In this document: piece by piece, positions 2,508 to 13,822 of the stretch
How the letters are laid out: each line of letters opens with the position of its first letter
How positions within the stretch are numbered: the first letter of the stretch is position 1
Assembly (NCBI RefSeq): GCF_002777915.1
Contig: NZ_NJGE01000007.1
Span: 6,692 to 59,517, forward strand
Length of the DNA stretch: 52,826 nt
Direction of reading: 5' to 3'
Origin: Bartonella tribocorum
Lineage (GTDB): Bacteria > Pseudomonadota > Alphaproteobacteria > Rhizobiales > Rhizobiaceae
Translations under genes and position numbers: made by a program
The notes under the pieces: model-generated
What the model was told of the DNA's origin: nothing
The model's input: the letters and a program-made list of their open reading frames with translations, nothing else
Database searches by the model: none

Positions 2508-2873
2508 TTAGCTTGCGTTCTCATCAGCGATAAGCTGTAGAATGGCTCTTTGTTTTATCGAAGTGAGTGTTCTAAATCTTTTGAGCAACAGGTATTCTTC
2601 TGTGCTGAAGATGACTTCATCGTGAGAGGAGAGGGCATGTTGTTTTGTGATGACATCTGCATAAAAAAAGGAAACTGGAACATTAAGAATATCGGAAATT
2701 TCCTTTAACCGCCCTGCGCCGACACGGTTTAAGCCTTTTTCATATTTTTGAATTTGCTGAAAGCTTATTCCTAAAGCATGCCCTAAAGTTGTTTGAGACA
2801 TCTTTAGCATTTGTCGTCTCAAGCGAATTTTCTTGCCAACAAAAAGATCAATATTAAGATTTTGAGATTGCAT
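2508..2873 (-). CDS. XRE-family HTH regulator behind a Brt-like leader (copy A)
   Basis: This 121-residue protein has a Cro/C1-type helix-turn-helix at about residues 12-68 (IRLRRQMLKMSQTTLGHALG, then QQIQKYEKGLNRV). A short C-terminal part ends in LTSIKQRAILQLIADENAS. The ATG begins the conserved MQSQNLN start shared by the paralogues and follows a GGGG-type ribosome site directly after a structured leader. It is one of six related copies in 2508-13002. In B. henselae, proteins of this type encoded directly after Brt RNAs were reported as DNA-binding regulators influencing the badA adhesin gene. The targets of this copy are unknown. Confidence 0.85.
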   Translation of the reverse strand: MQSQNLNIDLFVGKKIRLRRQMLKMSQTTLGHALGISFQQIQKYEKGLNRVGAGRLKEISDILNVPVSFFYADVITKQHALSSHDEVIFSTEEYLLLKRFRTLTSIKQRAILQLIADENAS

Positions 2874-2889
2874 TGTTCCCCGCCAAGTG

Positions 2890-3086
2890 CGAGCGCCCTC
2901 GCATAAGTATTCCGGGAGTCAAAAATACTGAACTCAAATCAGCTTTTTTGCTTTTAGTGCTGGTAAGCACCTGGACATAGCAAAAACTCCCGGAATTCCG
3001 GGATACCCACAGAGTAGGGTAAATTCATGTTTGAGTTTTCGGGTTTTTGAATCCCTATTGGTCGTTGCGTATGCGACCAAAACACC
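2890..3086 (-). ncRNA. Brt-like structured RNA leader, copy A
   Basis: An approximately 195-nt leader lies directly upstream of HTH copy A. Read on the minus strand it has a 5' hairpin (TTGGTCG/CGACCAA), a long-range stem AACTCAAA/TTTGAGTT, a TTTTTGCT/AGCAAAAA stem capped by GTGCT-GGTA-AGCAC, the palindrome CCCGGAATTCCGGG, and a terminal hairpin GCGAG-GGCG-CTCGC just before the HTH ribosome site. Six related leaders occur in the window, and the AACTCAAA stem covaries among the intact ones. Length, structure and position match the Brt RNA family known from B. henselae. The 5' end is inferred from the promoter and the 3' end from the last hairpin. Confidence 0.8.
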
Positions 3087-3092
3087 TTTTAA

Positions 3093-3121
3093 CTCATAAA
3101 GGAATTTCAGCAAATTGGCAA
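3093..3121 (-). promoter_or_regulatory. promoter of Brt-like leader A
   Basis: On the minus strand TTGCCA (3121-3116) and TATGAG (3098-3093) are separated by exactly 17 bp. The same arrangement is kept upstream of leaders B, C, D, F and G, with either TTGCCA or TTGTAA as the -35 box. This supports it as a functional sigma-70-type promoter rather than chance. Confidence 0.6.
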
Positions 3122-3184
3122 TAAAAAACAGCTTTTTAATGAGAAGTGGTGTTTTTCTCATGAAAGAAATAAAATACTCCTAAA

Positions 3185-3335
3185 TGGGGAGACTTTGAAT
3201 AGAGCGTGTCGTTTAGCGTCTTATGAAGTGAATTGTATGAAATGGCGGCTCAAGAGGCGTTTTCAAAGGTTGGATTGTTTACAGATGACTGTTTAGTGGT
3301 GTGGATTAAGATCTTTGTTTTTTTGCAGTGTGGGA
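3185..3335. repeat. dispersed repeat R2, copy 1
   Basis: This segment (starting near GGGGAGACTTTGAATAGAG and running past GGATTGTTTACAGATGACTG) recurs at about 6864-7060 and 8747-8940. It contains no open frame worth calling. In each case it follows a leader or repeat block, so it marks the edge of a duplicated unit. Confidence 0.6.
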
Positions 3336-3456
3336 AAATCAGAACAGATATATTGATAGCAACGCGTGCACATCATTTCAAATCAAAAAGCATCGAGGAG
3401 GCTATTTTGTAAAATACGCGTGAATGTTTATGAACAGAGTGCGTTATCATATAATA

Positions 3457-3816
3457 TTAGCTTGCGTTTTCATCCATGATAAGCTGTAGAATGGCTCTTT
3501 GTTTTATCGACGTGAGCGTTCTAAATCTTTTGAGCAACAGATATTCCTCTGTGTTGGAGATGACTTCATCGTGAGAGGAGAGGGCATGTTGTTTTGTGAT
3601 GACATCTGCATAAAAAAAGGAAACTGGTACATTAAGAATATCGGAAATTTCCTTTAACCGCCCCGCGCTGACACGGTTTAAGCCTTTTTCATATTTTTGA
3701 ACTTGTTGGAAGCTTATCCCTAAAGCGTGCCCTAAGGCTTTTTGAGACATCTTTAGCATTTGTCGTCTCAAGCGAATTTTCTTGCCAACAAAAAGATCAA
3801 TATTAAGATTTTGAGA
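3457..3816 (-). pseudogene. XRE-family HTH regulator, 5' end lost (copy 2)
   Basis: The frame is nearly identical to the other HTH paralogues from the third residue (SQNLNIDLFVGKK) to the C-terminal DENAS. However, the ATG and second codon have been replaced by TAC AAC, and the Brt-like leader is absent. Homology to the other copies stops abruptly at 3816 and repeat R4 begins there. No in-frame start codon exists upstream before a stop. The first usable ATG, at 3771, would remove the N-terminal 18 residues, leaving a 104-residue protein that starts inside the first HTH helix. It is probably non-functional, though a truncated product cannot be excluded. Confidence 0.65.
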
Positions 3817-3865
3817 GTTGTATAAAATAGAAGAGCTTGTGTGAGGTTTTGAGCTTTTTGCGTTT
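3811..3865. repeat. short dispersed repeat R4, copy 1
   Basis: About 50 bases around TTGTATAAAATAGAA and GTGAGGTTTTGAGC recur at 9826-9880, directly after a RepL-like gene. Here the repeat abuts the truncated HTH copy, so it marks a recombination junction. Confidence 0.6.
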
Positions 3866-4019
3866 TTTAAATTTCACACATTGTATGCCGTTTCAGCACC
3901 CTAAGGGCGGGGCGTTCCGATAGAGTAGGGAAGGTATGAGCATACGGTAGGATAAGAGTATTCTTAAGCTGTTTACGTTTTAAAGTTTACGATAAATCAT
4001 AATTTTGGCAATATTTAGC

Positions 4020-4234
4020 TAAATATATGGAGTGCACTTACAACAGCTCGTTTAAGCCGAATAAGTGAGGGCCCTCATAGCAGATTTCCCATTTAAAATA
4101 TTAGAAAATGCTCTACGAGACAGAGCAAGTTATTCAGTTGCTTCAATCACAGGTCAGTCAAGTTTTGCGATTACATCTTCGCGTAATCATTCGCTAGGGT
4201 GTGGAGCATTTTCCATTGTTTTTAAAGTCATCAT
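4020..4234 (-). pseudogene. dead HigA-type antitoxin
   Basis: The minus-strand translation from the ATG at 4234 reads like a HigA/VapI-type XRE antitoxin: NAPHPSE, then LREDVIAKL, LALSRRAFSNILNGKSAM. It is interrupted by at least three in-frame stop codons. No matching HigB toxin frame is left beside it. A similar but differently broken antitoxin lies at 36509-36759. The bases around it (3866-4382) contain nothing else recognisable. Confidence 0.7.
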
Positions 4235-4382
4235 TCTCGTGTCGTTATGAAATACAGAAAAAAATTATTTTTATGGTTAAAAACGAGGGTTTTTATAGAA
4301 GTGAAAATTTCTGCGTTTTTTGCAAGAACTTTTAAGTCTTTACGTTTAAAATATCAGAGAGTGTTCACATTCAATCGTGGAT

Positions 4383-4781
4383 TCATTTAGGACGAGTACT
4401 GAGATAAGCACGTGGTTCTCCATCCACATTATATTGAAGTAAAGACACTATAACTCTATTATTTAATTGTATTCTATAACTCAAACTCACACCCATGTTT
4501 TGCTGTTTTTTGGGTTGATCTGTATAAATCACATTATATCGATTTTGTCGCAACATATTGATAAATAAAGGCGTAAAGTTGTCTGCTGTGTCATTTTTCT
4601 TTATAAGAAGTGTGGTTGTAGTTGGTGGTAAAGACCTTTTGATATTGCTAATAAAACTGTTAGCGACCAGTTTAGCCTGACGCTTCGTAAGATTTTGATC
4701 AACATAATTTGATGTATAACTGCTCACGGATACGCAACCAGCCACAAACACAACCGGTGACAAAAATAAATATTTTAACAT
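4383..4781 (-). CDS. TrbH-like conjugation-associated lipoprotein
   Basis: The 132-residue protein starts with a hydrophobic signal ending in the lipobox VAGC (Cys16), so it should be an outer-membrane or periplasmic lipoprotein. The rest, with PPTTTTLLIKKND, a central FTPLFINMLRQNRYNVI segment and a late LSYRIQLNNRVIVSLLQY strand region, has the layout I associate with TrbH of conjugative transfer (trb) operons. No other trb gene is recognisable nearby, and the next upstream frame is decayed. It looks like an orphan survivor of a lost conjugation module. The assignment rests on overall resemblance, not on a catalytic motif. Confidence 0.55.
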   Translation of the reverse strand: MLKYLFLSPVVFVAGCVSVSSYTSNYVDQNLTKRQAKLVANSFISNIKRSLPPTTTTLLIKKNDTADNFTPLFINMLRQNRYNVIYTDQPKKQQNMGVSLSYRIQLNNRVIVSLLQYNVDGEPRAYLSTRPK

Positions 4782-4832
4782 CTTACTCCCCCCTGCTTTA
4801 ATTCTATACTTTATTGTGAGTAATTTTACACC

Positions 4833-5120
4833 TTATAGGCTCTCTTGCGAAGCTTCTATTCCAGAAATAAGAGCAATTTCGCTTATAGCTATACTACAAC
4901 ATATTGGTTTCAAATCAAGTGGTAATTCATCAATGAATAATGACTCCGGCTTTAAGGTTGCTTCATGTGCTTCTTGCGGTGTCTATTTTAAATAAACGGT
5001 TGCTTTTGGTGACTGTGATAAAAAAGTAATCTTTTGCACTTGCATGTTCAGATCATGTTCTCTATCGTCATTATAAAATGATGTGTTAGGTACCGTTTTA
5101 GATTGACCAAATCAATTTTC
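4833..5120 (-). pseudogene. decayed reading frame of unknown family
   Basis: One minus-strand frame reads through about 95 codons (segments FGQSKTVPNTSFYNDD, QVQKITFLSQSPKATVYL, PESLFIDELPLDLKPICC) with only two stop codons breaking it and no start codon. The amino-acid composition looks like real protein, unlike the other frames. I do not recognise the family. It ends about 50 bases before the TrbH-like lipoprotein begins on the same strand, so the two may derive from one former operon. Confidence 0.4.
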
Positions 5121-5235
5121 AAACATTGCTTTTTGAGGGCTACCTTTTAAAAATATACATGAATGCTTATCCTGTTTGCTGTACAGTGCTATCGGTTGAG
5201 GTGTCACTGTAAGGCATAAAACTTTGCACATGTGA

Positions 5236-5440
5236 TGTTTTTACGAGAATGCGTGGTGAATATGAGAAGGGGAAACTTGTCCGGATAATCTTGTGGAATA
5301 AACACCATAAAATGGGAAGCGCAATGAGTTGCGTTCTGGAGAGGCCAGCTTGTTTGCTAACAAGATCGGGAAGAGATTTCTTTCCAGTGAAGATGTGTAA
5401 GGCAAGTCAAGAACAGAACATGGTGCGTCCTATAGTATGA
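5236..5440. repeat. dispersed repeat R3, copy 2
   Basis: This segment repeats 2263-2480 (shared landmarks GAATGCGTGGTGA, GGATAATCTTGTGGAATAAA, CATAAAATGGGAAGC). In both places it lies immediately downstream of an HTH gene on the minus strand, so it is part of the duplicated HTH unit. Confidence 0.65.
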
Positions 5441-5442
5441 TA

Positions 5443-5808
5443 TTAGCTTGCGTTTTCATCCATGATGAGCTGTAGAATGGCTCTTTGTTTTATCGAAGTG
5501 AGCGTTCTAAATCTTTTGAGCAACAGGTATTCTTCTGTGCTGAAGATGACTTCATCATGAGGAGAGAGGGCGTGTTGTTTTGTGATGACATCTGCATAAA
5601 AAAAGGAAACTGGAACACTGAGGATATCGGAAATTTCCTTTAACCGCCCTGCGCTGACACGGTTTAAGCCTTTTTCATATTTTTGAATTTGTTGAAAGCT
5701 TACACCTAAAGCGTGCCCTAAGGCTTTTTGAGACATTTTTAGCATTTGTCGTCTCAAGCGAATTTTTTTGCCAACAAAAAGATCAATATTAAGATTTTGA
5801 GATTGCAT
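5443..5808 (-). CDS. XRE-family HTH regulator behind a Brt-like leader (copy B)
   Basis: This is a 121-residue paralogue of copy A with the same domain plan. The HTH is near residues 12-68 and the C-terminal tail ends LTSIKQRAILQLIMDENAS. I placed the start at the ATG of MQSQNLN (5808). A longer in-frame start would add ten residues read from the terminal hairpin of the leader, which is unlikely to be translated. The ribosome site is GGGGAAA just before the ATG. Differences from copy A are a few substitutions, for example KALGHALGV instead of TTLGHALGI at the start of the recognition region, so the operators may be similar but not identical. Confidence 0.85.
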   Translation of the reverse strand: MQSQNLNIDLFVGKKIRLRRQMLKMSQKALGHALGVSFQQIQKYEKGLNRVSAGRLKEISDILSVPVSFFYADVITKQHALSPHDEVIFSTEEYLLLKRFRTLTSIKQRAILQLIMDENAS

Positions 5809-5821
5809 TTTCCCCACCGGT

Positions 5822-6019
5822 TGCGAGCGCCCTCGCATAAGTATTCCGGGAGCTTGAAAATACTGAAACCTAATCAGCCTTTTTGCTTTTAGTGCTTAAA
5901 GCACCTGGACATAGCAAAAACTCCCGGAATTCCGAGATACCCACAAAGTGGGGTAAATTCATGCTTAGGTTTCGGGTTTTCAAGGCCCTATTGGTCGTTG
6001 CGTATGCGACCAAGACACT
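5822..6019 (-). ncRNA. Brt-like structured RNA leader, copy B
   Basis: It has the same architecture as copy A. The long-range stem here reads GAAACCTAA/TTAGGTTTC, so both arms have changed relative to copy A and remain perfectly complementary. The apical hairpin is GTGCT-TAA-AGCAC and the terminal hairpin is GCGAG/CTCGC. The promoter on the minus strand is TTGTAA (6054-6049) and TATGAC (6031-6026), 17 bp apart. It directly precedes HTH copy B. Confidence 0.8.
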
Positions 6020-6183
6020 TTTCAAGTCATAAAGGAATTTCAGAAAATTTACAATAAAAAATAGTTTTTAGTGAGAAGTGGTGTTTTTCTCATGAAAGAA
6101 ATAAAGCCTCTATATCGAGGGAGTATGGCTTTGAACAACGCGTATCGCTTTGTAGAGAGCATGGAGTGCACTATCATATAATA

Positions 6184-6549
6184 TTAGCTTGCGTTCTCAT
6201 CAGCGATGAGCTGTAGAATGGCTCTTTGCTTTATCGAAGTGAGTGTTCTAAATCTTTTGAGCAACATGTATTCCTCTATGCTGGAGATGACTTCATCATG
6301 AGGAGAGAGGGTATGTTGTTTTGTGATGACATCTGCATAAAAAAAGGAAACTGGAACACTGAGGATATCGGAAATTTCCTTTAACCGCCCTGCGCTGACA
6401 CGATTGGCGCCTTTTTCGTATTTTTGAATTTGTTGAAAGCTTATTCCTAAAGCGTGCCCTAAAGTTGTTTGAGACATCTTTAGCATTTGTCGTCTCAAGC
6501 GAATTTTTTTGCCGACAAAAAGATCAATATTAAGATTTTGAGATTGCAT
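6184..6549 (-). CDS. XRE-family HTH regulator behind a Brt-like leader (copy C)
   Basis: This is a 121-residue paralogue with the shared MQSQNLNIDLFVGKK start (ATG at 6549), the Cro/C1-type HTH and a C-terminal LQLIADENAS. The frame stays open for another 32 codons upstream, but those lie inside the leader and begin at no conserved site. It carries KGANRVSAG where copies A and B have KGLNRV, and IEEYMLLKRF near the C terminus. Adjacent copies B and C are separated by only one leader and are read in the same direction, consistent with a tandem duplication of gene plus leader. Confidence 0.85.
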   Translation of the reverse strand: MQSQNLNIDLFVGKKIRLRRQMLKMSQTTLGHALGISFQQIQKYEKGANRVSAGRLKEISDILSVPVSFFYADVITKQHTLSPHDEVISSIEEYMLLKRFRTLTSIKQRAILQLIADENAS

Positions 6550-6561
6550 TTTCCCCACCGG

Positions 6562-6762
6562 TTGCGAGCGCCCTCGCATAAGTATTCCGGGAGTCTGAAA
6601 ACACTGAACCCTAGTCAGCATCTTGCTTTTAGTGCGGACAAGCACCTGGACATAGCAAAATCTCCCGGAATTCCGGGATACCCACAGAGTGGGTTTATTT
6701 TTACGCTAGGGTTTTAGGATTTTCAGTTCCCTCTTGGTCGTTGCGTATGCGACCAAGACACT
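6562..6762 (-). ncRNA. Brt-like structured RNA leader, copy C
   Basis: The long-range stem is AACCCTAG/CTAGGGTT, a third sequence version with pairing kept. The apical hairpin is GTGC-GGACAA-GCAC. The CCCGGAATTCCGGG palindrome and the terminal GCGAG/CTCGC hairpin are present. The promoter on the minus strand is TTGTAA (6797-6792) and TATGAG (6774-6769), with a 17 bp spacer. Confidence 0.8.
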
Positions 6763-6863
6763 TTTTAACTCATAAAGGAATTTCAGAAAATTTACAATAA
6801 AAAACAGCTTTTTTAATGAGGAGTGGTGTTTTTCTCATGAAAGAAACAAAGTACCCCCAAAAT

Positions 6864-7060
6864 GGGGAGACTTTAAATAGAGAGGGTAGCTTAGTGTCTC
6901 ATGAAGTGAATTGTATGAAATGGTTGCCTAAAAGGGCATTTTCAGAAGTTGGATTATTTACAGATGACTGTTTAGCGGTGTGAGGTTAAGGTCTTTTTTT
7001 TCGAAGTGTGGGGAGGCAAGCAAAATATTTAAAATTGATCATCGCTCTTTAAAATTCTTT
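6864..7060. repeat. dispersed repeat R2, copy 2
   Basis: It matches 3185-3335 and, more closely, 8747-8940 (shared GGTTGCCTAAAAGGGCATTT and AAAATTCTTTCTTT). It separates leader C from the first RepL-like gene. No coding frame is evident between 6763 and 7163. Confidence 0.6.
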
Positions 7061-7163
7061 CTTTTATTTAAGAGCGTGTGGAGGCAATTCTTTTACCATT
7101 GTGTTCTTTTTTCTCTTGAAATGTCTCATGGCAAAAAAGCATACACTGTTGAAAAAAATATTG

Positions 7164-7748
7164 TTAGCTGTGTGAAACAACATTTTTGTTATATTTTTCT
7201 CTGCGATTAACATGGCGTGGGAATATCACATGTTCTCCAATAAAAACAAAATTTGGATTGATAAAATACCAACCTTTGCGGATATGTTTGGCTATTATCT
7301 TAGCTTCTTCTAGCTCTGCCAAGCCACGTGAAAATGTTGATGATGATAGAGACGATGTATGTTTTTGAAGGGCGTGTTTTGGGGGTGCGTATTTTTTTTG
7401 ATTGAGAAAATCACGCAAAACAAAAACATCTAAAGGTATGGGATCTTTACAGATCGTCTTATTTTTAAATATCCACGCTAATATTTCAAAAGCCTTTATA
7501 CCCGATGAACCAAGCTTGTAAAATAACCCAATCTGAGAAACGTGTTGTTTTGTAAACTGTCTACACTCAAGATCTTCCTGAATCGTAGGAATGGTTTTTT
7601 CATCTGTTGAATAAGGGGATTTTTCTCTCAGTATGGATTCTCTTTTAATGGCAGGGTGCGCATCTCCAAATGGTTTTTGTCGTTCAAATGGATTTTTTAC
7701 ACACCTGATGGTTTGCTTTCTCTGTTTAGCTAATGTATGAATTGTCAT
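7164..7748 (-). CDS. RepL-like replication protein paralogue (divergent member)
   Basis: This 194-residue protein shares the architecture of the two plus-strand proteins at 7933 and 9273. A variable N-terminal half contains a CVKNPFERQ element resembling the ENPFLN motif of the others. A winged-helix-like region follows (SSSTFSRGLAELEEAKII), and then the signature YFINPNFVFIG. A Trp/Tyr-x-x-NP-x-x-x-F-x-G ending of this type is typical of RepL-like plasmid replication initiators. It is transcribed divergently from the next gene across about 180 bases. Whether it still drives any replication is unknown; a role as DNA-binding regulator is equally possible. Confidence 0.6.
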   Translation of the reverse strand: MTIHTLAKQRKQTIRCVKNPFERQKPFGDAHPAIKRESILREKSPYSTDEKTIPTIQEDLECRQFTKQHVSQIGLFYKLGSSGIKAFEILAWIFKNKTICKDPIPLDVFVLRDFLNQKKYAPPKHALQKHTSSLSSSTFSRGLAELEEAKIIAKHIRKGWYFINPNFVFIGEHVIFPRHVNRREKYNKNVVSHS

Positions 7749-7932
7749 TTAAATAATAATACAATTGTCAGTTTGGTAGCGAGTTTTAATGAGATGTAAC
7801 ATTTAACGAAATTTATGTCAATAATTTTCTTCTTTAGAAAGTAGAAAAAATATAGAAATTATTTCTTTTTGTATTTGATAGCTTGTTACAAGAGTGAAAT
7901 TGCTGCCTAAAAATTCTTGGTGGACAGTTATA
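7749..7932. promoter_or_regulatory. divergent intergenic region between two RepL-like genes
   Basis: This AT-rich spacer must hold the promoters of both flanking genes. TGACAATT occurs twice near the minus-strand start, once overlapping its ATG, and could be a short operator. The left half is repeated almost exactly at 9106-9140 as part of the duplicated unit. No iterons typical of a replication origin are visible. Confidence 0.35.
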
Positions 7933-8496
7933 ATGAACGATATTAATTTGCGAAAGTTAGAGTACTCGCCTATAAAAAATCCATTTCTGAATAAACATCA
8001 AATACGCATTTGTGGTAAAACTATTACAACAAATGTTGAATACCAAGAATTTAATAATCCCAATACACATGAAGCTGTGAGCATAATTTTGTCTCATATT
8101 GCTGAGGAAGAAGTTGAAGAAATTGTAAAAACAGATGAAAAATATTTTGTGGAAACATTTATTGAAAATGTTCGAAAAACTTTTAATCTAACCCGTACGG
8201 GATATCGTATTTTCATAGAGGTTTTTCAAATATATCAATCCACTCAATTAACAGATAGTATTACTTTAGCTTGGCTGAATGGTGGTTTAAATGGTGAAAA
8301 GTCTGATATGACTGACAGGACATTTCACAATGGCTTAAAAGAACTCATAGCTAAAGGTTTTTTAAAACCAAAATTGCGTAATCAGTATTGGGTTAATCCT
8401 GCGCTTTTCTTCAAAGGTGATCAATCTGTTGCATTCATACGAAAATACGAACTAAAATTATCTGCTTCTCATGAAAATCTTTCCAACAAAGGATAG
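7933..8496 (+). CDS. RepL-like replication protein paralogue
   Basis: This 187-residue protein begins MNDINLRKLEYSPIKNPFLN. A winged-helix-like segment follows (DSITLAWLNGGLNG, TFHNGLKELIAKGFL), then the signature QYWVNPALFFKGD. These features resemble RepL-type plasmid replication proteins. The start was chosen at 7933 because the paralogue at 9273 begins at the equivalent residue and GGTGGA precedes it; a start at 7894 is also open. The last 70 residues are nearly identical to those of the paralogue at 9273, while the first 110 differ strongly, which suggests either gene conversion of the 3' half or diversifying change in the 5' half. Confidence 0.65.
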   Translation: MNDINLRKLEYSPIKNPFLNKHQIRICGKTITTNVEYQEFNNPNTHEAVSIILSHIAEEEVEEIVKTDEKYFVETFIENVRKTFNLTRTGYRIFIEVFQIYQSTQLTDSITLAWLNGGLNGEKSDMTDRTFHNGLKELIAKGFLKPKLRNQYWVNPALFFKGDQSVAFIRKYELKLSASHENLSNKG

Positions 8497-8519
8497 CAAG
8501 TTAATCTCGTGGATTTTAC

Positions 8520-8745
8520 AAAATAGGAAAGCTTAAGTGCAAAAGGACCTTTATGTATTTTTTGCTTTTCAGTTCTTTGCAAGACGATGAAAAGCGTTTA
8601 GACGCAAGCTTTTTAAAAAATTGCACAAAATTTTTTGGGATTTTTGGGAAATTTATTCCGTTGTGTCGTAAAATACCATCATTTAGAGCGATGATAGAAG
8701 CTCCCTAAAACCATGAGGTATTTTTATGAGAATGCATGGTGAATA
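8520..8745. repeat. dispersed repeat R1, copy 2
   Basis: It repeats about 2040-2262 with roughly 85-90 percent identity by eye (shared AAAAGGACCTT, TTCTTTGCAAGAC, GACGCAAGCTTTTTAAAAA). It has no coding frame. It lies just downstream of the RepL-like gene here and upstream of efp in the other place. Confidence 0.65.
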
Positions 8746-8746
8746 T

Positions 8747-8982
8747 TTGAGAGTGTAGCTTAGTGCCTCATGAAGTGAACCGTATGAAATGGTTGCCTAA
8801 AAGGGCATTTTCAGAAGTTGGATTATTTACAGATTATGGTTTAGCGGTGTGAGGTTAAGGTCTTTTTTTTTCGAAGTGTGGGGAGGCAAGCCAAATGTTT
8901 AGAATTGATCATCGCTCTTTAAAATTCTTTCTTTTCTTTAAGAGCGTGTAGAGGTAATTTCCTTGCCATTGTGCCCTTTTCG
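8747..8982. repeat. dispersed repeat R2, copy 3, fused to a RepL-gene fragment
   Basis: It matches 6864-7108 and then joins directly to sequence equivalent to 7627 onward, so about 500 bases equivalent to most of the minus-strand RepL-like gene are missing. This junction shows that 6864-8496 was duplicated and the second copy then suffered an internal deletion. Confidence 0.6.
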
Positions 8983-9105
8983 TCTCAGTATGGATTCTCT
9001 TTTAATAGAAGGGTGCGTATCTCCAAATGGTTTTCGTCGTTCAAATGGATTTTTTGCACACCTGATGGTTTGCTTTCTCTGTTTAGCTAATGTATGAATT
9101 GTCAT
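8983..9105 (-). pseudogene. 5' fragment of a RepL-like gene
   Basis: The fragment matches the first 40 or so codons and the ATG of the gene at 7164-7748 with only a handful of changes. The rest of the gene is deleted. Its upstream region is retained and again faces a plus-strand RepL-like gene. Confidence 0.75.
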
Positions 9106-9272
9106 TTAAATAATAATACAATTGCTAGTTTGGTAGTAATAATAAGATGCAACAGTTTAGAGAAAATATGTCAATAAATTTTTCTTATAAAAGAAGAAAA
9201 ATTTCAAAAATATTCTTTTGTTGCTGTGATTACAATCTGAAAGCTGCCTATAAGCTTATGATGGGCAGTTAA

Positions 9273-9818
9273 ATGAATGACCTTAATTTGAGAAAATTAG
9301 AATATTCACCTCTCGAAAATCCTTTTCTCAATAAATCCACAATATGCATTCGGGATAAAACTGTTACGACTTGTATTGGGTATCAAAAGTTAGTCGATTA
9401 TAAGACGAATAAAATTTTAACTGTTCCTATTATTCATGTTAGAGATGAGAAAAATAATGAGGAACAGCTTTTACAAGCATTTGCAGACGGCATTCGAGAG
9501 GTTTTTAATTTATCCCTTACAGGGTATCGTGTTTTTGTCGAAGTTTTAAAAATATATCAATCTGTTCCGATAACAGATAGCATTACTTTAGCTTGGCTTA
9601 ATGGTGGTTTAAATGGTGTGAAAGTGGATATGACAAATAGAACATTTCACAATGGCTTAAAAGAACTCATAGCCAAAGATTTTTTAAAACCAAAATTGCG
9701 TAATCAGTATTGGGTTAATCCTGCGCTTTTCTTCAAAGGTGATCAATCTGTTGCATTCATACGAAAACACGAACTAAAATTATCTGCTTCGCATGAAAAT
9801 CTTCCAAACGATGAATAA
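9273..9818 (+). CDS. RepL-like replication protein paralogue (second tandem copy)
   Basis: The 181-residue protein starts at ATG 9273 with MNDLNLRKLEYSPLENPFLN. Residues from about 110 on (DSITLAWLNGGLNG through KLSASHENLPN) are almost identical to the copy at 7933-8496, including QYWVNPALFFKGD. The middle section is clearly different. It belongs to the second, partly deleted copy of a duplicated divergent gene pair. Function is inferred only from the RepL-like C-terminal signature and the winged-helix-like predicted fold. Confidence 0.65.
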   Translation: MNDLNLRKLEYSPLENPFLNKSTICIRDKTVTTCIGYQKLVDYKTNKILTVPIIHVRDEKNNEEQLLQAFADGIREVFNLSLTGYRVFVEVLKIYQSVPITDSITLAWLNGGLNGVKVDMTNRTFHNGLKELIAKDFLKPKLRNQYWVNPALFFKGDQSVAFIRKHELKLSASHENLPNDE

Positions 9819-9825
9819 AAAATGA

Positions 9826-9880
9826 TTTTGAAAATTGTATAAAATAGAAAGGGATTCTGTGAGGTTTTGAGCTTTTTGCC
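9826..9880. repeat. short dispersed repeat R4, copy 2
   Basis: It matches 3811-3865 over about 50 bases, starting a few bases after the RepL-like stop codon. The remainder to 10020 shows no feature. Confidence 0.55.
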
Positions 9881-10020
9881 TGCTTTAGCAGGTATAGAGC
9901 ATGGTGTTGTTCTTGTGTCTGCTGCCTTCTGGGTCTTGAAGCATCTTTTGTTTATTCTTTTGATAAAGCCTTTCTAAGAGAAATTTGTGTCACGCAAAAT
10001 TTAAGTTTGTTAAGGTGTTT

Positions 10021-11064
10021 TTAAAAAATAGGAAGGAGCTTTATGGCTTCTTTCTGCGCCTTTTCTCGTTGTGTGTTGTCCATCCCTTGGAGCATTATTT
10101 CAAGATCAGGGGCTTGCATTTTTGCTTCCTTTGCAAGCAGATACCATGCGGCTGCTGTTATTATATCGCCTTTTGTTCCGATGCCGTCTCGATAAAGCCT
10201 TGCAAGAGCAATTTGTGCTGGGGGTACCATTTTGGTGGCATTGTGAAGCAGCAAATGAAAAGCACGGTCAAAATCTTTCTCTCCGCCACGGCCTTGTATA
10301 AGCCATTGTGCTAAATGAAGCTGGGATTTTAAGTGGTTGTTTTGAGCTGCAACTTCCAGCAGTCTGCGGGCATTACGCTCATCCTTTGGTCGGTGTAAAG
10401 TGCCTAAGGAGAGAATTTTTGCCGCTGCAAAAGCAGCTTCTGCATCGCCAAGAGCAGCTCCTTTTAAGTGCCATTTTAAAGCTTGTTCGATGGCTTCATT
10501 TTCACTGCTTTGGGACGAGACGCCAGGGAGATTTTGTTTTTCCTGTGAGGCTTTATAAAGAAGAAGTTGTGCATAATAAAAATAGGCTTCCTTGACGCCT
10601 GCCTTGACAGACTGTCGAATAAACTGTTCACCAAGTTCTTGATTTTGTTTTACAAAATGTCCATCAAACAACATAAGTCCATAACGCAGTTGGGCTTGGG
10701 GTTCCCCTTGTCTTGCGGCGCGTTCAAACCATAACGCAGCCCGCGCCCCGTCAACAGGAACAGCGCATCCCTCCATATAAATTCGGGCAAGAAGCGTTTG
10801 GGCAAAAGGATCATTTTTTTCAGCACGCCGGAGAGCTTCACGAAAAGCTTTTAAATAATAGCCTTGGATGTAATAGTCATAAGCTTTGTCGTAGTCTCCA
10901 GCTTTTAAGGGCTGAAAATGTTCTTCTGGGTTTGAAGATTCTTGAGTCGTCTTGAAAGAGCGTTCAAAATCTGAGAGTTCTTCAATGTTTCCAGAAGAAT
11001 TTACAACAGAACTTGCAAATCCCATTATACCTAGGATAAGCAGTTTAACGCTTTTCTTGATCAT
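10021..11064 (-). CDS. secreted Sel1-repeat (TPR-like) protein
   Basis: The protein of about 347 residues has an N-terminal signal-like segment (KKSVKLLILGIMGFASSVV) and then a series of Sel1-like repeats. The A-x-x-x-L-x-x-x-Y-x-x-G pattern is visible in TLLARIYMEGCAV, QLRYGLMLFDG and IALARLYRDGIG, typically followed by A-A-x-W-x-x-x-A-A. Sel1 proteins are helical scaffolds for protein contacts. I chose the ATG at 11064, which follows GAGGAGGAAA, over an in-frame ATG 12 codons earlier. It is probably exported to the periplasm or cell surface. Partners are unknown. Confidence 0.8.
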   Translation of the reverse strand: MIKKSVKLLILGIMGFASSVVNSSGNIEELSDFERSFKTTQESSNPEEHFQPLKAGDYDKAYDYYIQGYYLKAFREALRRAEKNDPFAQTLLARIYMEGCAVPVDGARAALWFERAARQGEPQAQLRYGLMLFDGHFVKQNQELGEQFIRQSVKAGVKEAYFYYAQLLLYKASQEKQNLPGVSSQSSENEAIEQALKWHLKGAALGDAEAAFAAAKILSLGTLHRPKDERNARRLLEVAAQNNHLKSQLHLAQWLIQGRGGEKDFDRAFHLLLHNATKMVPPAQIALARLYRDGIGTKGDIITAAAWYLLAKEAKMQAPDLEIMLQGMDNTQREKAQKEAIKLLPIF

Positions 11065-11492
11065 CGATGTTTCCTCCTCATTACCAATCAGAGTTTTCAC
11101 ATTTTTCTTTTATCATTACAAGCCATATAAGAATCCCATTGCTCTCTTATTTTTCCTTTTCGTTAAGGGAGGTTTGGGCACGTTTATAAAAATAGCATAA
11201 ACGTTTATAAGAACCAGACTGTTTTAAACAGTGCTATTTTAAACAATTCAAACAACAAGGCTGAATGATCCAGAGAGACTATCTTTTCTTATAAACGCTT
11301 GTCATCCTTAAAATAAAAAGCGTCTACCATGAGGCAAAATACGCAATGAATTTTTAATGAAGAGTGGAGGAATTTTTAATGAAGAGCGGGGGAATTGCTG
11401 ATGAAAAGTGTAAAATGCTGATGAAGAGAGGTCTGTAGACTCTAGAGGCGCGTGTCACATTATAGAGCGTGTTCGCATTCTATCGCATGATT
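11065..11492. other. gene-free spacer with short direct repeats
   Basis: No gene is recognisable. Bases 11350-11420 hold imperfect direct repeats of TTTTTAATGAAGAG and TGATGAAGAG. The region after 11440 resembles the 3' flanks of the other HTH copies (TATAGAGCGTG and similar). Confidence 0.5.
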
Positions 11493-11858
11493 TTAGCTTG
11501 CCTTCTCATCAGAAAGTAACTGCAAAATGGCTTTCTTTTTTACAGTTGTTAGAACTCTAAATTTTTTGAGCAGTTGGTATTCTTCTGTGCTGGAAATGAT
11601 TTCATCATGATGATAAGGAGGCTGTTGTTTTGTGATGATATCCGCATAAAAAAAGGAAACTGGAACATTAAGAATATCGGAAATTTCCTTTAACCGCCCC
11701 GCGCTAACACGGTTGGCGCCTTTTTCATATTTTTGAACTTGTTGGAAGCTTATCCCTAAAGCATGCCCTAAAGTTGTTTGAGACATCTTTAGCATTTGTC
11801 GTCTCAAGCGAATTTTCTTGCCGACAAAAAGATCAATATTAAGAGTGTTGGTTTGCAT
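11493..11858 (-). CDS. XRE-family HTH regulator behind a Brt-like leader (copy D)
   Basis: This 121-residue paralogue begins MQTNTLNIDLFVGKK at 11858, after a GGGGACA ribosome-site region. The HTH is nearly identical to copies A-C. The C-terminal third differs as a block (KQQPPYHHDEIISS, KKFRVLTTVKKKAILQLLSDEKAS) and matches copy F instead. The six copies therefore form two subfamilies that share the DNA-binding part but differ in the tail, which may govern oligomerisation or a partner. An in-frame upstream extension of ten codons lies in the leader hairpin and was not used. Confidence 0.85.
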   Translation of the reverse strand: MQTNTLNIDLFVGKKIRLRRQMLKMSQTTLGHALGISFQQVQKYEKGANRVSAGRLKEISDILNVPVSFFYADIITKQQPPYHHDEIISSTEEYQLLKKFRVLTTVKKKAILQLLSDEKAS

Positions 11859-11871
11859 TGTCCCCACCGGT

Positions 11872-12067
11872 TGCGAGCGCCCTCGCATGAGTATTCCGGG
11901 AGTTAAAAGTACTGAACCTAAATCAGCATTTTGCTTTTAGTGCTGGTAAGCACCTGGACATAGCAAAATCTCCCGGAATTCCGGGATACCCGCAAAGCGG
12001 GGTAAATTCATGTTTAGGTTTCAGGCTTTTAATCCCTATTGGTCGTTGCGTATGCGACCAAGACACC
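11872..12067 (-). ncRNA. Brt-like structured RNA leader, copy D
   Basis: The long-range stem reads GAACCTAAA/TTTAGGTTTC, giving a fourth sequence version with pairing preserved. The palindrome CCCGGAATTCCGGG, apical hairpin GTGCT-GGTA-AGCAC and terminal hairpin GCGAG/CTCGC are present. The promoter is TTGCCA (12102-12097) and TATGAG (12079-12074) on the minus strand, 17 bp apart. Confidence 0.8.
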
Positions 12068-12119
12068 TTTTAACTCATAAAGGAATTTCATGAGGTTGGC
12101 AATAAAAAATAGTTTTTAA

Positions 12120-12255
12120 TGAGAGTCCGTGTGGTTTTGATGCAAGTAATAAAGCATAACTATTTTTCTTATTGGAGATTGTTTGCTCGGGCAGATGATA
12201 TAGTGTGTTTTCTTTGCCAATGAAAATGTCGTTAATTAAGCTTGTTGGTTTGCAT
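12120..12255 (-). pseudogene. remnant of an HTH regulator gene (first)
   Basis: After a leader-like ribosome region the start ATGCAAACCAACAAG resembles copy D, but the frame shifts and stops within a few codons. In another frame INDIFIGKE still echoes NIDLFVGKK of the intact proteins. The remaining 100 bases show only faint similarity to the HTH. A near-identical remnant lies at 13265-13418. Confidence 0.5.
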
Positions 12256-12267
12256 TTTTCCCCGCCA

Positions 12268-12468
12268 AGTGCGCGCGCGCCCTTATGCGTATTCCGAGAG
12301 CCAAAAATACTGAATCTCAATCAGCTTTTTTGCTTTTAGTGCTGGTAAGCATCTGGACAGAGCAAAAACTCCCAGAATTTCAGGAAATCCGCAAAGCGGG
12401 ATCAATTCATGTTTGTGTTTTCAGGATTTAGAGCCCTCTTTATTGTTGTGTATGCAATCAAAACATCC
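12268..12468 (-). ncRNA. degenerate orphan Brt-like leader, copy E
   Basis: It is alignable along its length with the other leaders but decayed. The EcoRI-like palindrome is reduced to CCCAGAATTTCAGG. The long-range stem arms (TTGAGATT and AACACAAA) no longer pair. The terminal hairpin is a GC run, and the -35 box at the expected 17 bp spacing is gone (TATCAT). It stands in front of an HTH remnant. It is probably not expressed as a folded RNA. Confidence 0.55.
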
Positions 12469-12636
12469 CTCAATGACATAAAGTAATTTTTAGGTAAATG
12501 ATAATAAAAAAGAATGTTTCTTAATGTATAGGTTTGTAAAGCGAAAAGCAGCGTGTTTTTTGATGCAAGCAATATAAAGCGTTCACAAAAGGGGAGACTT
12601 TGAATAGAGCGTGGTATGCGCCGCTATCGCATGATT

Positions 12637-13002
12637 TTAGTTTGTATTCTCATCAGAAATGAGCTGTAAAATGGCTTTCTTTTTTACAGTTGTCAAAACT
12701 CTAAATTTTTTGAGTAGTTGGTATTCTTCTGTGTTGGAGATGATTTCATCATGATGATAAGGGGGCTGTTGTTTCGTGACAATATCTGCATAGAAAAAGG
12801 AAACTGGAACATTAAGAATATCGGAAATTTCCTTTAACCGCCCCGCGCTTACGCGATTTAAGCCGTTTTCATATTTTTGAACTTGTTGGAAGCTTATCCC
12901 TAAAGCGTGCCCTAAAGTTGTTTGAGACATTCTTAGCATTTGTCGTCTCAAGCGAATTTTTTTGCCAACAAAAAGATCAATATTAAGATTTTGATTTTGC
13001 AT
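12637..13002 (-). CDS. XRE-family HTH regulator behind a Brt-like leader (copy F)
   Basis: This 121-residue paralogue begins MQNQNLNIDLFVGKK at 13002. It shares the copy D-type tail (VLTTVKKKAILQLISDENTN). The HTH region has MLRMSQTTLGHALG and YENGLNRV, the latter a K-to-N change in the otherwise invariant YEKG. Together with leader F, the HTH remnant and leader G it repeats the layout of 11493-12468, so the two about 1.1 kb blocks arose by tandem duplication. Confidence 0.85.
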   Translation of the reverse strand: MQNQNLNIDLFVGKKIRLRRQMLRMSQTTLGHALGISFQQVQKYENGLNRVSAGRLKEISDILNVPVSFFYADIVTKQQPPYHHDEIISNTEEYQLLKKFRVLTTVKKKAILQLISDENTN

Positions 13003-13016
13003 TTTCCCCACCGGTT

Positions 13017-13215
13017 TGCGAGCGCCCTCGCATAAGTATTCCGGGAGTCAAAAATACTGACCTCGAATCAGCTTTTTTGCTTTTAGTGCTGGTAAGCACC
13101 TGGACATAGCAAAAACTCCCGGAATTCCGGGATACCCGCAAAGCGGGGTAAATTGATGTACGAGGTTTCGGGTTTTTGAATCCCTATTGGTCGTTGCGTA
13201 TGCGACCAAAACACC
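13017..13215 (-). ncRNA. Brt-like structured RNA leader, copy F
   Basis: The long-range stem is ACCTCG/CGAGGT, a fifth version, again complementary. The palindrome, the GTGCT-GGTA-AGCAC hairpin, the TTGGTCG/CGACCAA hairpin and the terminal GCGAG/CTCGC hairpin are all intact. The promoter on the minus strand is TTGCCA (13250-13245) and TATGAG (13227-13222), with a 17 bp spacer. Confidence 0.8.
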
Positions 13216-13264
13216 TTTTAACTCATAAAGGAATTTCATGAGGTTGGCAATAAAAAATAGTTTT

Positions 13265-13418
13265 TAATGAGAGTCCGTGTGGTTTTGATGCAAGTAATTT
13301 TGATGCAAGTAATAAAGCATAACTATTTTTCTTACTGGAGATTGTTTGCGCGGGTAAATGATATAGTGTGTTTTCTTTGCCAATGAAAATGTCGTTAATT
13401 AAGCTTGTTGGTTTGCAT
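13265..13418 (-). pseudogene. remnant of an HTH regulator gene (second)
   Basis: It is almost identical to the remnant at 12120-12255, with an extra tandem duplication of TTTTGATGCAAGTAA. It has the same ATGCAAACCAACAAG start and the same early stop. It therefore arose by duplication after the gene had already decayed. Confidence 0.5.
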
Positions 13419-13435
13419 TTTACCCTCCCGCCGGT

Positions 13436-13635
13436 TGCGAGCGCCCTCGCATGCGTATTCCGGGAGCTTGAAAATACTGAGTTCTAGTCAGCTTTTTTTG
13501 CTTTTAGTGCGGACAAGCACCTGGACAGAGCAAAAACTCCCGGAATTTCAGGACACCCGCAAAGCCGGATCAATTCATGTTTGCGTTTTCAGGCTTTAGA
13601 GCCCTCTTGATCGTTGCATATACGACCAAAATAGC
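13436..13635 (-). ncRNA. orphan Brt-like leader, copy G, with intact promoter
   Basis: This leader keeps a good promoter (TTGTAA 13670-13665, TATGAG 13647-13642, 17 bp), the GCGAG/CTCGC terminal hairpin and the apical GTGC-GGACAA-GCAC hairpin. The long-range stem arms are no longer complementary (CTAGAACT against AACGCAAA), and the palindrome has decayed to CCCGGAATTTCAGG. The 5' hairpin has weakened too. It may still be transcribed, but without an HTH gene to lead into. Confidence 0.6.
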
Positions 13636-13761
13636 CTTTAACTCATAAAGGAATTTGAGACAATTTACAATAAAAGATAGTTTTTTAATGAGAGCCTATC
13701 CGCCTTTTAACCTCTCTGGAACGATAACCAAAATCATGATATCAGCCCCGTGCTTATCAAA

Positions 13762-13822
13762 AGGTCTAAAATGATTTTTTCCACGGTAATGAATTCACAA
13801 GCGGTTTCTTTATTAAAATTTG
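13762..13822 (-). pseudogene. small fragment of the thiE-like gene
   Basis: The minus-strand translation reads CEFITVEKIIL, matching CEFVAVEEVIL near the C terminus of the intact ThiE-like protein at 13995-14657. Only about 20 codons are recognisable. It lies downstream of the intact gene on the same strand, mirroring the suhB arrangement. The rest of 13636-13994 has no visible feature. Confidence 0.5.

What the first reader, a model, noticed from the sequence alone, without database searches (positions are those of the whole stretch)
2890..13635. Seven Brt-like RNA leaders with covariation supporting a long-range stem
In the five leaders that precede a complete HTH gene, the same two positions, about 80-90 bases apart, read (plus strand) AACTCAAA/TTTGAGTT, GAAACCTAA/TTAGGTTTC, AACCCTAG/CTAGGGTT, AACCTAAA/TTTAGGTT and ACCTCG/CGAGGT. 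The arms differ between copies while staying complementary, although the flanking sequence is almost unchanged. This is direct comparative evidence for a conserved base-paired element. The variation could also make each copy self-specific, for example preventing pairing between RNAs of different copies. The family as such (Brt RNAs upstream of HTH genes) is known in B. henselae; the covarying, copy-specific stem is what deserves attention.
Basis: partly seen in the sequence, partly recalled or inferred. Interest (0 to 1): 0.85.

Follow-up and report, generated by a model that had tools for sequence, protein, structure and literature searches.

The report
Bartonella Brt leaders with covarying arm-loop
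In Bartonella bacteria, a repeated RNA element ahead of regulator genes carries a small hairpin loop that pairs with a matching stretch about 90 bases upstream; both sides change together from copy to copy, which points to a working RNA switch in front of each regulator gene.

Summary
The five window leaders that precede a complete HTH gene have complementary arms 90-91 nt apart (7/7 pairs in four, 6/7 in one); the two without a gene do not. The 3' arm is exactly the loop of a conserved hairpin (CUGA-loop-UCAG, RNA on the minus strand). Of 199 gene-linked copies from 38 genomes of the genus, 175 keep a 5-bp core match; random same-genome pairs match in 394 of 3970 by a related test. Where the gene is lost, arm-loop pairing, outer stem and a terminator-like hairpin decay, while an 88-nt module (stem E with hairpins C and D) stays. 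The two folds exclude each other. I read this as a cis-acting two-state leader in which arm-loop pairing belongs to the fold opposing an attenuator. Copy self-recognition is not supported: the outer stem is equally diverse, and 57 of 138 loops also fit another leader of the genome. Brt RNAs are known; this architecture was not found in the library searched.

The parts
2874..3080 (-). Leader 1 (hairpin P0 to base before ATG) of the HTH gene 2508-2873
   Evidence: among 32 matching places in this genome
3030..3036 (-). 5' arm of leader 1 (ACTCAAA in RNA sense)
2928..2942 (-). Hairpin D of leader 1; loop 2932-2938 is the 3' arm (7/7 complementary)
2508..2873 (-). HTH_3 (XRE-type) regulator gene, trp-like
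5809..6013 (-). Leader 2 of the HTH gene 5443-5808
5965..5971 (-). 5' arm of leader 2 (AACCTAA)
5863..5877 (-). Hairpin D of leader 2; loop 5867-5873 (7/7 complementary)
5443..5808 (-). HTH_3 regulator gene
6550..6756 (-). Leader 3 of the HTH gene 6184-6549
6706..6712 (-). 5' arm of leader 3 (ACCCTAG)
6604..6618 (-). Hairpin D of leader 3; loop 6608-6614 (7/7 complementary)
6184..6549 (-). HTH_3 regulator gene
11859..12061 (-). Leader 4 of the HTH gene 11493-11858
12013..12019 (-). 5' arm of leader 4 (ACCTAAA)
11912..11926 (-). Hairpin D of leader 4; loop 11916-11922 (7/7 complementary)
11493..11858 (-). HTH_3 regulator gene
12240..12461 (-). Leader 5 (low end approximate), orphan without HTH gene; arm and loop do not match; stem E still pairs (two G-U) and hairpin D is kept
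13003..13209 (-). Leader 6 of the HTH gene 12637-13002
13159..13165 (-). 5' arm of leader 6 (CCTCGTA)
13057..13071 (-). Hairpin D of leader 6; loop 13061-13067 (6/7 complementary)
13116..13125 (-). E5, 5' strand of stem E in leader 6 (ATTCCGGGAG), shared with the 3' side of terminator-like hairpin B
13036..13047 (-). E3, 3' strand of stem E in leader 6 (CTCCCGGAATAC); its UCCC also pairs in the base of stem P1
13018..13031 (-). Hairpin F of leader 6 (GCGAG/CTCGC), just before the ribosome site
12637..13002 (-). HTH_3 regulator gene
13405..13629 (-). Leader 7 (low end approximate), orphan without HTH gene; arm and loop do not match; stem E and hairpin D kept

Best explanation
Each element is a Brt-type leader RNA of an XRE regulator (trp) gene with two competing folds. 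Fold S2: stem E (AUUCCGGGAG/CUCCCGGAAU) encloses hairpins C and D, and the variable loop of D is free. Fold S1: the loop of D pairs with the 5' arm about 90 nt upstream (helix P2), the outer stem P1 zips up next to it, the base of P1 takes the UCCC of E3, and hairpin B keeps E5, so E cannot form. Shown by comparison: P1, P2, C and E are conserved helices; E excludes B and the base of P1; P2, P1 and B are mostly kept where a trp gene follows and decay where it is gone. Inferred: S2 is the attenuating (OFF) state and S1 the anti-attenuating (ON) state; arm-loop contact helps start S1; the pairing acts in cis. Sequence diversity of the arms is most simply compensatory drift plus recombination in a helix whose pairing, not sequence, is selected.
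For: Covariation: P2 738 and P1 554 against a null maximum of 248 in 60 simulations; 7 of 7 P2 pairs with changes on both sides. Fixed place: matches start at -91 to -98 from the hairpin in 161 of 163. Gene linkage: 5-bp core kept in 175 of 199 gene-linked copies and 29 of 104 orphans. Shared fate with B: orphans 20 of 33 with P2 when B is intact, 9 of 71 when B is lost; gene-linked 160 of 173 and 15 of 26. In orphans E and C stay paired (cells .968; C .945 and .978) while P0, P1, P2, A, B and F fall (.881.789.712.720.816.838). The D stem, checked without selecting on it, is exact in 97 of 106 orphans and 191 of 197 gene-linked copies. Detection with the 5' half alone still finds the module in 74 of 78 gene-less copies. 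Energy: S1 lower than S2 in 140 of 196 gene-linked rows, median -5.4 kcal/mol; in 91 orphan rows 21, median +9.9. Single non-Watson-Crick exceptions favour G-U over A-C, as sense-strand RNA would (P0 53:6, C 37:1 and 20:1, E 16:1, P1 6:0; weaker in A 22:8, B 6:3; none in P2 1:2, F 2:2). Five plasmid copies looked at later match at 7/7 (four) and 6/7 (one). Published, seen only as passages of a review: deleting the 3' part of brt1 raises trp1 transcription (PMC8070961).
Against: At single-pair level only 66-169 and 70-165 reached E below 0.05; the other P1 and P2 pairs had E of 0.27 and above, and one of the top 12 column pairs (79-83) is no base pair. RNAalifold returns E and C, not P1/P2. The minimum-energy fold of window leader 2 uses E and D, not the arm helix. 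Both drawn folds are partial: means -48.6 and -45.3 against a minimum of -73.4 kcal/mol. 24 of 199 gene-linked copies lack the core match where expected, 2 of them matching elsewhere, so it is not indispensable. P2 itself gives no strand signal by G-U. Stem E has no run of U behind it. Decay of S1 parts in orphans could reflect age. The ON/OFF assignment has no direct test. The tree under the null is unsure because copies recombine.
Confidence: 0.45

Rival explanations
1. The arm-loop code works in trans: the loop of abundant Brt RNA pairs with the arm of RNAs of the same type, so each locus (or plasmid) has a private channel, as in antisense control of plasmid copy number.
For: In a fixed register the 5-bp core is all Watson-Crick in 158 of 199, with one G-U in 2, one A-C in 2, one other in 3, two or more faults in 29 and no anchor in 5, although other variable helices use G-U freely; 25 core types; U at loop position 2 in 190 of 199 and YUNR in 179 of 199; within a genome loop types repeat less than between genomes at matched flank identity; plasmid copies.
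Against: Counted by alignment column, 12 of 358 P2 cells in 53 leaders are G-U. The outer stem shows the same within-genome pattern (0.48 against 0.57). 57 of 138 self-matched loops also fit another leader of the genome. Loops of mismatched orphans find arms in the same genome no more than expected (29 of 61 against 27.9). The pairing is mostly lost when trp is lost.
Confidence: 0.15
2. Only a passive structural stem: P1 and P2 hold the leader together or protect it; there is no switch, and hairpin D is incidental.
For: P1 and P2 columns change about equally often; the nested fold explains both.
Against: Stem E, incompatible with the base of P1 and with B, is itself conserved with G-U to A-C exceptions of 16:1 and changes on both sides at 2 of its 10 pairs (one sequence each of 53), and is kept in orphans; the stem of D is kept in orphans too (97 of 106).
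Confidence: 0.25
3. The 3' module (E, C, D) is a trans-acting small RNA in its own right and the 5' half is an add-on for cis control; the loop of D aims at mRNAs.
For: Module outlives trp: among gene-less copies 25 have only the module and 4 only the 5' half, one of those 4 running into masked N. A review reports unpublished Brt1 pull-down of several mRNAs (PMC8070961 passages).
Against: No module copies in this genome outside the same 32 places; no mRNA target tested here; orphans may lack a promoter because their 5' end decays.
Confidence: 0.12
4. Paired DNA inverted repeats (operator for Trp or a recombination site) rather than RNA.
For: P2 shows almost no G-U in a fixed register, as a DNA palindrome would.
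Against: The HTH regions of the window's proteins look nearly identical by eye while arms differ; neighbouring helices P0, C and E show sense-strand G-U preference.
Confidence: 0.03

Closest known systems
Brt1-9 RNAs of Bartonella henselae (Tu et al. 2016, PMC5387305; seen: abstract, passages, results part 1 of 3, discussion part 1 of 2)
   Same: Same arrangement: about 200-nt leader directly ahead of an XRE/HTH gene, multi-copy, reported only in Bartonella, many copies in rodent species, one plasmid copy in B. grahamii.
   Different: In the parts I saw, structure rests on single-sequence folding; no arm-loop covariation, outer stem, competing stem E or orphan analysis. RNA abundance was not tested here.
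Transcription attenuators and riboswitches with mutually exclusive stems (recalled)
   Same: Two conserved helices share one strand, upstream of the controlled gene.
   Different: No Rfam match in the window; the competing helix closes through a hairpin loop; its sequence differs from copy to copy.
Loop-linear antisense recognition in plasmid control RNAs (recalled; one search gave a listing only)
   Same: Short loop with U at position 2, near-strict complement, many specificities.
   Different: Both partners lie in one transcript and on one strand; trans action not shown.
Phage P4 immunity RNA (recalled; the listing gave nothing usable)
   Same: As recalled, a leader RNA segment complementary to another part of the same leader gives self-specific termination.
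   Different: Analogy from memory only; the leader has no match in the phage collection.

Membership tests
Brt RNA family | About 194-203 nt, ending 10-18 nt before an XRE/HTH gene | tested here: inconclusive
   Hairpin P0 to ATG is 203-207 nt in the five gene-linked leaders and the genes are HTH_3; transcript ends were not measured.
Brt RNA family | Restricted to Bartonella, multi-copy | tested here: met
   46 of 71 genus genomes match, 0 of 60 genomes of other genera of the family, 32 places here, plasmid matches 5, all Bartonella, no phage record.
Brt RNA family | Sequence similarity to the published Brt1-9 | not tested
   Houston-1 sequences were not fetched by name; identity inferred from arrangement, size and genus.
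Brt RNA family | Highly transcribed while trp is silent | not testable with these tools
   No RNA data.
Intrinsic-terminator attenuator | GC hairpin followed by a U run at the RNA 3' end | tested here: not met
   Hairpin B with a U run is called terminator-like (window 11400-13800 only) but lies about 100 nt before the published RNA end; stems E and F near that end have no U run.
Metabolite riboswitch | Known aptamer | tested here: not met
   0 Rfam matches at gathering score in the window.
Metabolite riboswitch | Ligand-dependent control | not testable with these tools
   A review reports more reporter signal at low heme (PMC8070961 passages).
Trans-acting antisense recognition system | Partner on another RNA, matched within the genome above expectation | tested here: not met
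   Mismatched orphan loops 29 of 61 against 27.9 expected. Tandem neighbours match in 21 and 22 of 159 (two directions) against 394 of 3970 random same-genome pairs, a slight excess not tested for significance.

The most novel reading that the evidence does not exclude
Brt loci form a family of RNA identity tags: a near-strict Watson-Crick loop-to-arm code with at least 25 core types gives each regulator locus, chromosomal or plasmid-borne, its own RNA channel, so that dozens of near-identical leaders in one cell are controlled with little cross-talk.
Probability: 0.12. Interest if true: 0.85.

Novelty: new variant of a known kind. Interest (0 to 1): 0.6.

Why it matters
Brt/Trp pairs are reported to control adhesion and biofilm genes in B. 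henselae, and in the papers seen it is unsettled how Brt RNA holds trp silent. A comparative structure with two exclusive folds turns that into specific, testable base pairs. Dozens of natural copies, with compensated, chimeric and gene-less variants, make a rich natural mutational series of one RNA switch. If the pairing also works between RNAs, it would be a natural set of orthogonal RNA tags.

Tried and rejected
Tandem cross-pairing (loop of one copy with the arm of its neighbour): 21 of 159 in one direction and 22 of 159 in the other, against 394 of 3970 random same-genome pairs; a slight excess, not tested, and far below the self-match, so not pursued. Loop-specific selection for distinctness: not separable from the outer stem (difference interval includes zero); a genome-label shuffle gave 42 same-type within-genome pairs against 53.4 expected, P 0.06. 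Orphan loops aimed at other leaders: no excess. Stand-alone mobile module: the module alone finds the same 32 places. An apparent excess of A-C over G-U in P2 was an artefact of register at the constant ACCCGAA stretch. The U at loop position 2 and the purine run suggest a U-turn, but transition-only compensatory change would keep the purine/pyrimidine pattern, so I give it little weight.

Limits: the set is biased to stretches with the best matches (79 stretches built from the listed part, which was cut off), so all genomes but the window's own are partly covered. 38 of 453 hits without the CUGA-loop-UCAG pattern were left out of the counts, so D-stem figures there are by selection; one search repeats the check without that filter (23 hits without anchor set aside). 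The 316-copy set leaves out the loci of named contigs. 'Gene-linked' means an ORF of at least 95 codons starting where trp starts; 193 of 199 show a crude HTH motif; 13 copies with 70-94 codons were dropped. Different definitions of the arm-loop match give 177, 175 and 158 of 199. R-scape itself was not run; the null was my own parsimony replay. Searches for prior work; one search lists three papers naming the transcripts (PMC5387305, PMC8070961, PMC8859334; the last seen as one passage). Okaro et al. 2020 (Microb. Pathog. 147:104272) was not read.

Full report
What is there. The window lies in a genome of 2.19 Mb in 98 contigs. That the genus is Bartonella is inferred: contigs of its same-genus relatives have the lengths of named B. 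tribocorum and B. queenslandensis contigs. Seven Brt-like leaders lie on the minus strand at about 2.87-13.63 kb. Five run directly into HTH_3 regulator genes; two (about 12240-12461 and 13405-13629) have lost theirs. The same genome holds 32 matching places.

The observation. In RNA sense the 3' arm is the whole loop of a hairpin with stem CUGA/UCAG. The 5' arm lies 90-91 nt upstream and complements the loop at 7 of 7 positions in leaders 1-4 and 6 of 7 in leader 6; leaders 5 and 7 do not match.

Genus-wide set. A profile of 96 leaders found 453 hits in the fetched loci, 415 with the hairpin pattern and 323 distinct cores. After leaving out loci of named contigs and repeated contexts, 316 copies in 44 genomes remained, 199 of them followed by an ORF of at least 95 codons, in 38 genomes. 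The 14 non-Bartonella loci of the protein search gave no leader hit, and 0 of 60 genomes of other genera of the family matched.

Covariation. Arm and loop match over at least L-1 contiguous pairs in 163 of 205 gene-linked distinct leaders, full length in 131; 300 loop shuffles gave means of 26.9 and 11.5 and maxima of 41 and 21. With other definitions the match is 177 of 199, 175 of 199 (5-bp core; 2 of the 24 misses match a little outside the expected place) and 158 of 199 (core in a fixed register; 100 shuffles, mean 16.9, maximum 26). In an APC-corrected G test on 194 non-redundant leaders, five P2 pairs and four P1 pairs are among the top 12 of about 26,800 column pairs; single-pair E-values were below 0.05 only for two P2 pairs, and one of the top 12 is no base pair. 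At helix level P2 scores 738 and P1 554; the maximum over 60 simulated alignments is 248. On 53 leaders aligned separately (five from the window, 48 others of the 199, chosen to be dissimilar), all 7 P2 pairs and 7 of 11 P1 pairs have changes on both sides, and none of 500 shuffles reached any of the five whole-structure measures. Five plasmid copies from B. grahamii, B. krasnovii, Bartonella sp. TT0105, B. harrusi and B. kosoyi match at 7 of 7 (four) and 6 of 7 (one); none is identical over 110 nt to another fetched locus, though some of their types occur in the set.

A competing fold. Stem E (AUUCCGGGAG with CUCCCGGAAU) is nearly invariant, with G-U to A-C single exceptions of 16:1 and changes on both sides at 2 of its 10 pairs, one sequence each. 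Its 5' strand is the 3' side of hairpin B and its 3' strand supplies UCCC to the base of P1, so E excludes B and that base. Evaluated energies are close in gene-linked rows (S1 lower in 140 of 196, median difference -5.4 kcal/mol) and favour S2 in orphans (S1 lower in 21 of 91, median +9.9); both drawn folds are partial and lie well above the minimum energy. RNAalifold gives E and C for the gene-linked set and parts of them for orphans. The window's own minimum-energy folds differ between copies.

A natural experiment. In 104 distinct orphan rows the paired cells of P2, P1, B, A, P0 and F fall to .712.789.816.720.881 and .838, from .897.914.976.847.989 and .985 in 196 gene-linked rows; E and C stay at .968 and .945-.978. 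Those rows were chosen with the D pattern; without that filter the exact D stem is present in 97 of 106 orphans and 191 of 197 gene-linked copies. Detection with the 5' half only finds 78 gene-less copies, 74 with the module; in the module-first search 25 gene-less copies lack the 5' half, against the 4 without the module, one of which runs into masked sequence. P2 and B are kept or lost together. So P2 goes with B and P1 as a unit tied to the gene, and E, C, D form a separate unit.

How it probably works. I read the leader as two-state. Published work, of which I saw review passages only, says that removing the 3' part of brt1 turns trp1 on and that low heme raises a reporter behind brt1 (PMC8070961). 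That fits E as part of an OFF state. S1, started by contact of arm and loop, would take E3 away and allow trp expression; it would then be kept mainly where there is a trp to switch on, as seen. This assignment is inference. The end signal is unclear: hairpin B has a U run but lies too early for the published 194-203-nt RNAs, and E and F have none.

Against the self-specific reading. Within-genome pairs share loops less than between-genome pairs at matched flank identity (odds ratio 0.57), but the outer stem does the same (0.48). 57 of 138 self-matched loops would also fit another leader in the genome, somewhat fewer than the 69.7 expected. Mismatched orphan loops show no excess of partners (29 of 61 against 27.9). 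What remains for a recognition code is the rarity of G-U in the 5-bp core in a fixed register (2 of 199; by alignment column 12 of 358 P2 cells) and the U at loop position 2 (190 of 199).

Verdict. The RNA family is known, while the covarying arm-loop helix, the outer stem, the competing stem E and their link to the gene were not found in the library searched.

Noticed in passing
window 3457-3771 (-): A sixth HTH_3 gene, shortened at its start and without a Brt leader.
   Followed up: partly
window 7164-9818: Duplicated block: two 181-200 aa proteins on the plus strand with a 194 aa partner and a remnant of it on the minus strand; no Pfam match for the three scanned.
   Followed up: partly
L220-L224: Five Bartonella plasmids each carry one Brt leader with an HTH gene; in four a ParA gene is near.
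   Followed up: partly
L004 14113-14669 (G000 contig C16): Three tandem leaders about 275 nt apart with arm and loop of different types, apparently recombination products.
   Followed up: partly
L087 14393-14488: A leader cleanly lacking everything between E5 and E3.
   Followed up: no
alignment columns 135-141: The loop of hairpin C is hypervariable; no partner was looked for.
   Followed up: no
L174: Hairpin D stem is CTCA/TGAG, a compensated change of CTGA/TCAG in a distant copy.
   Followed up: partly
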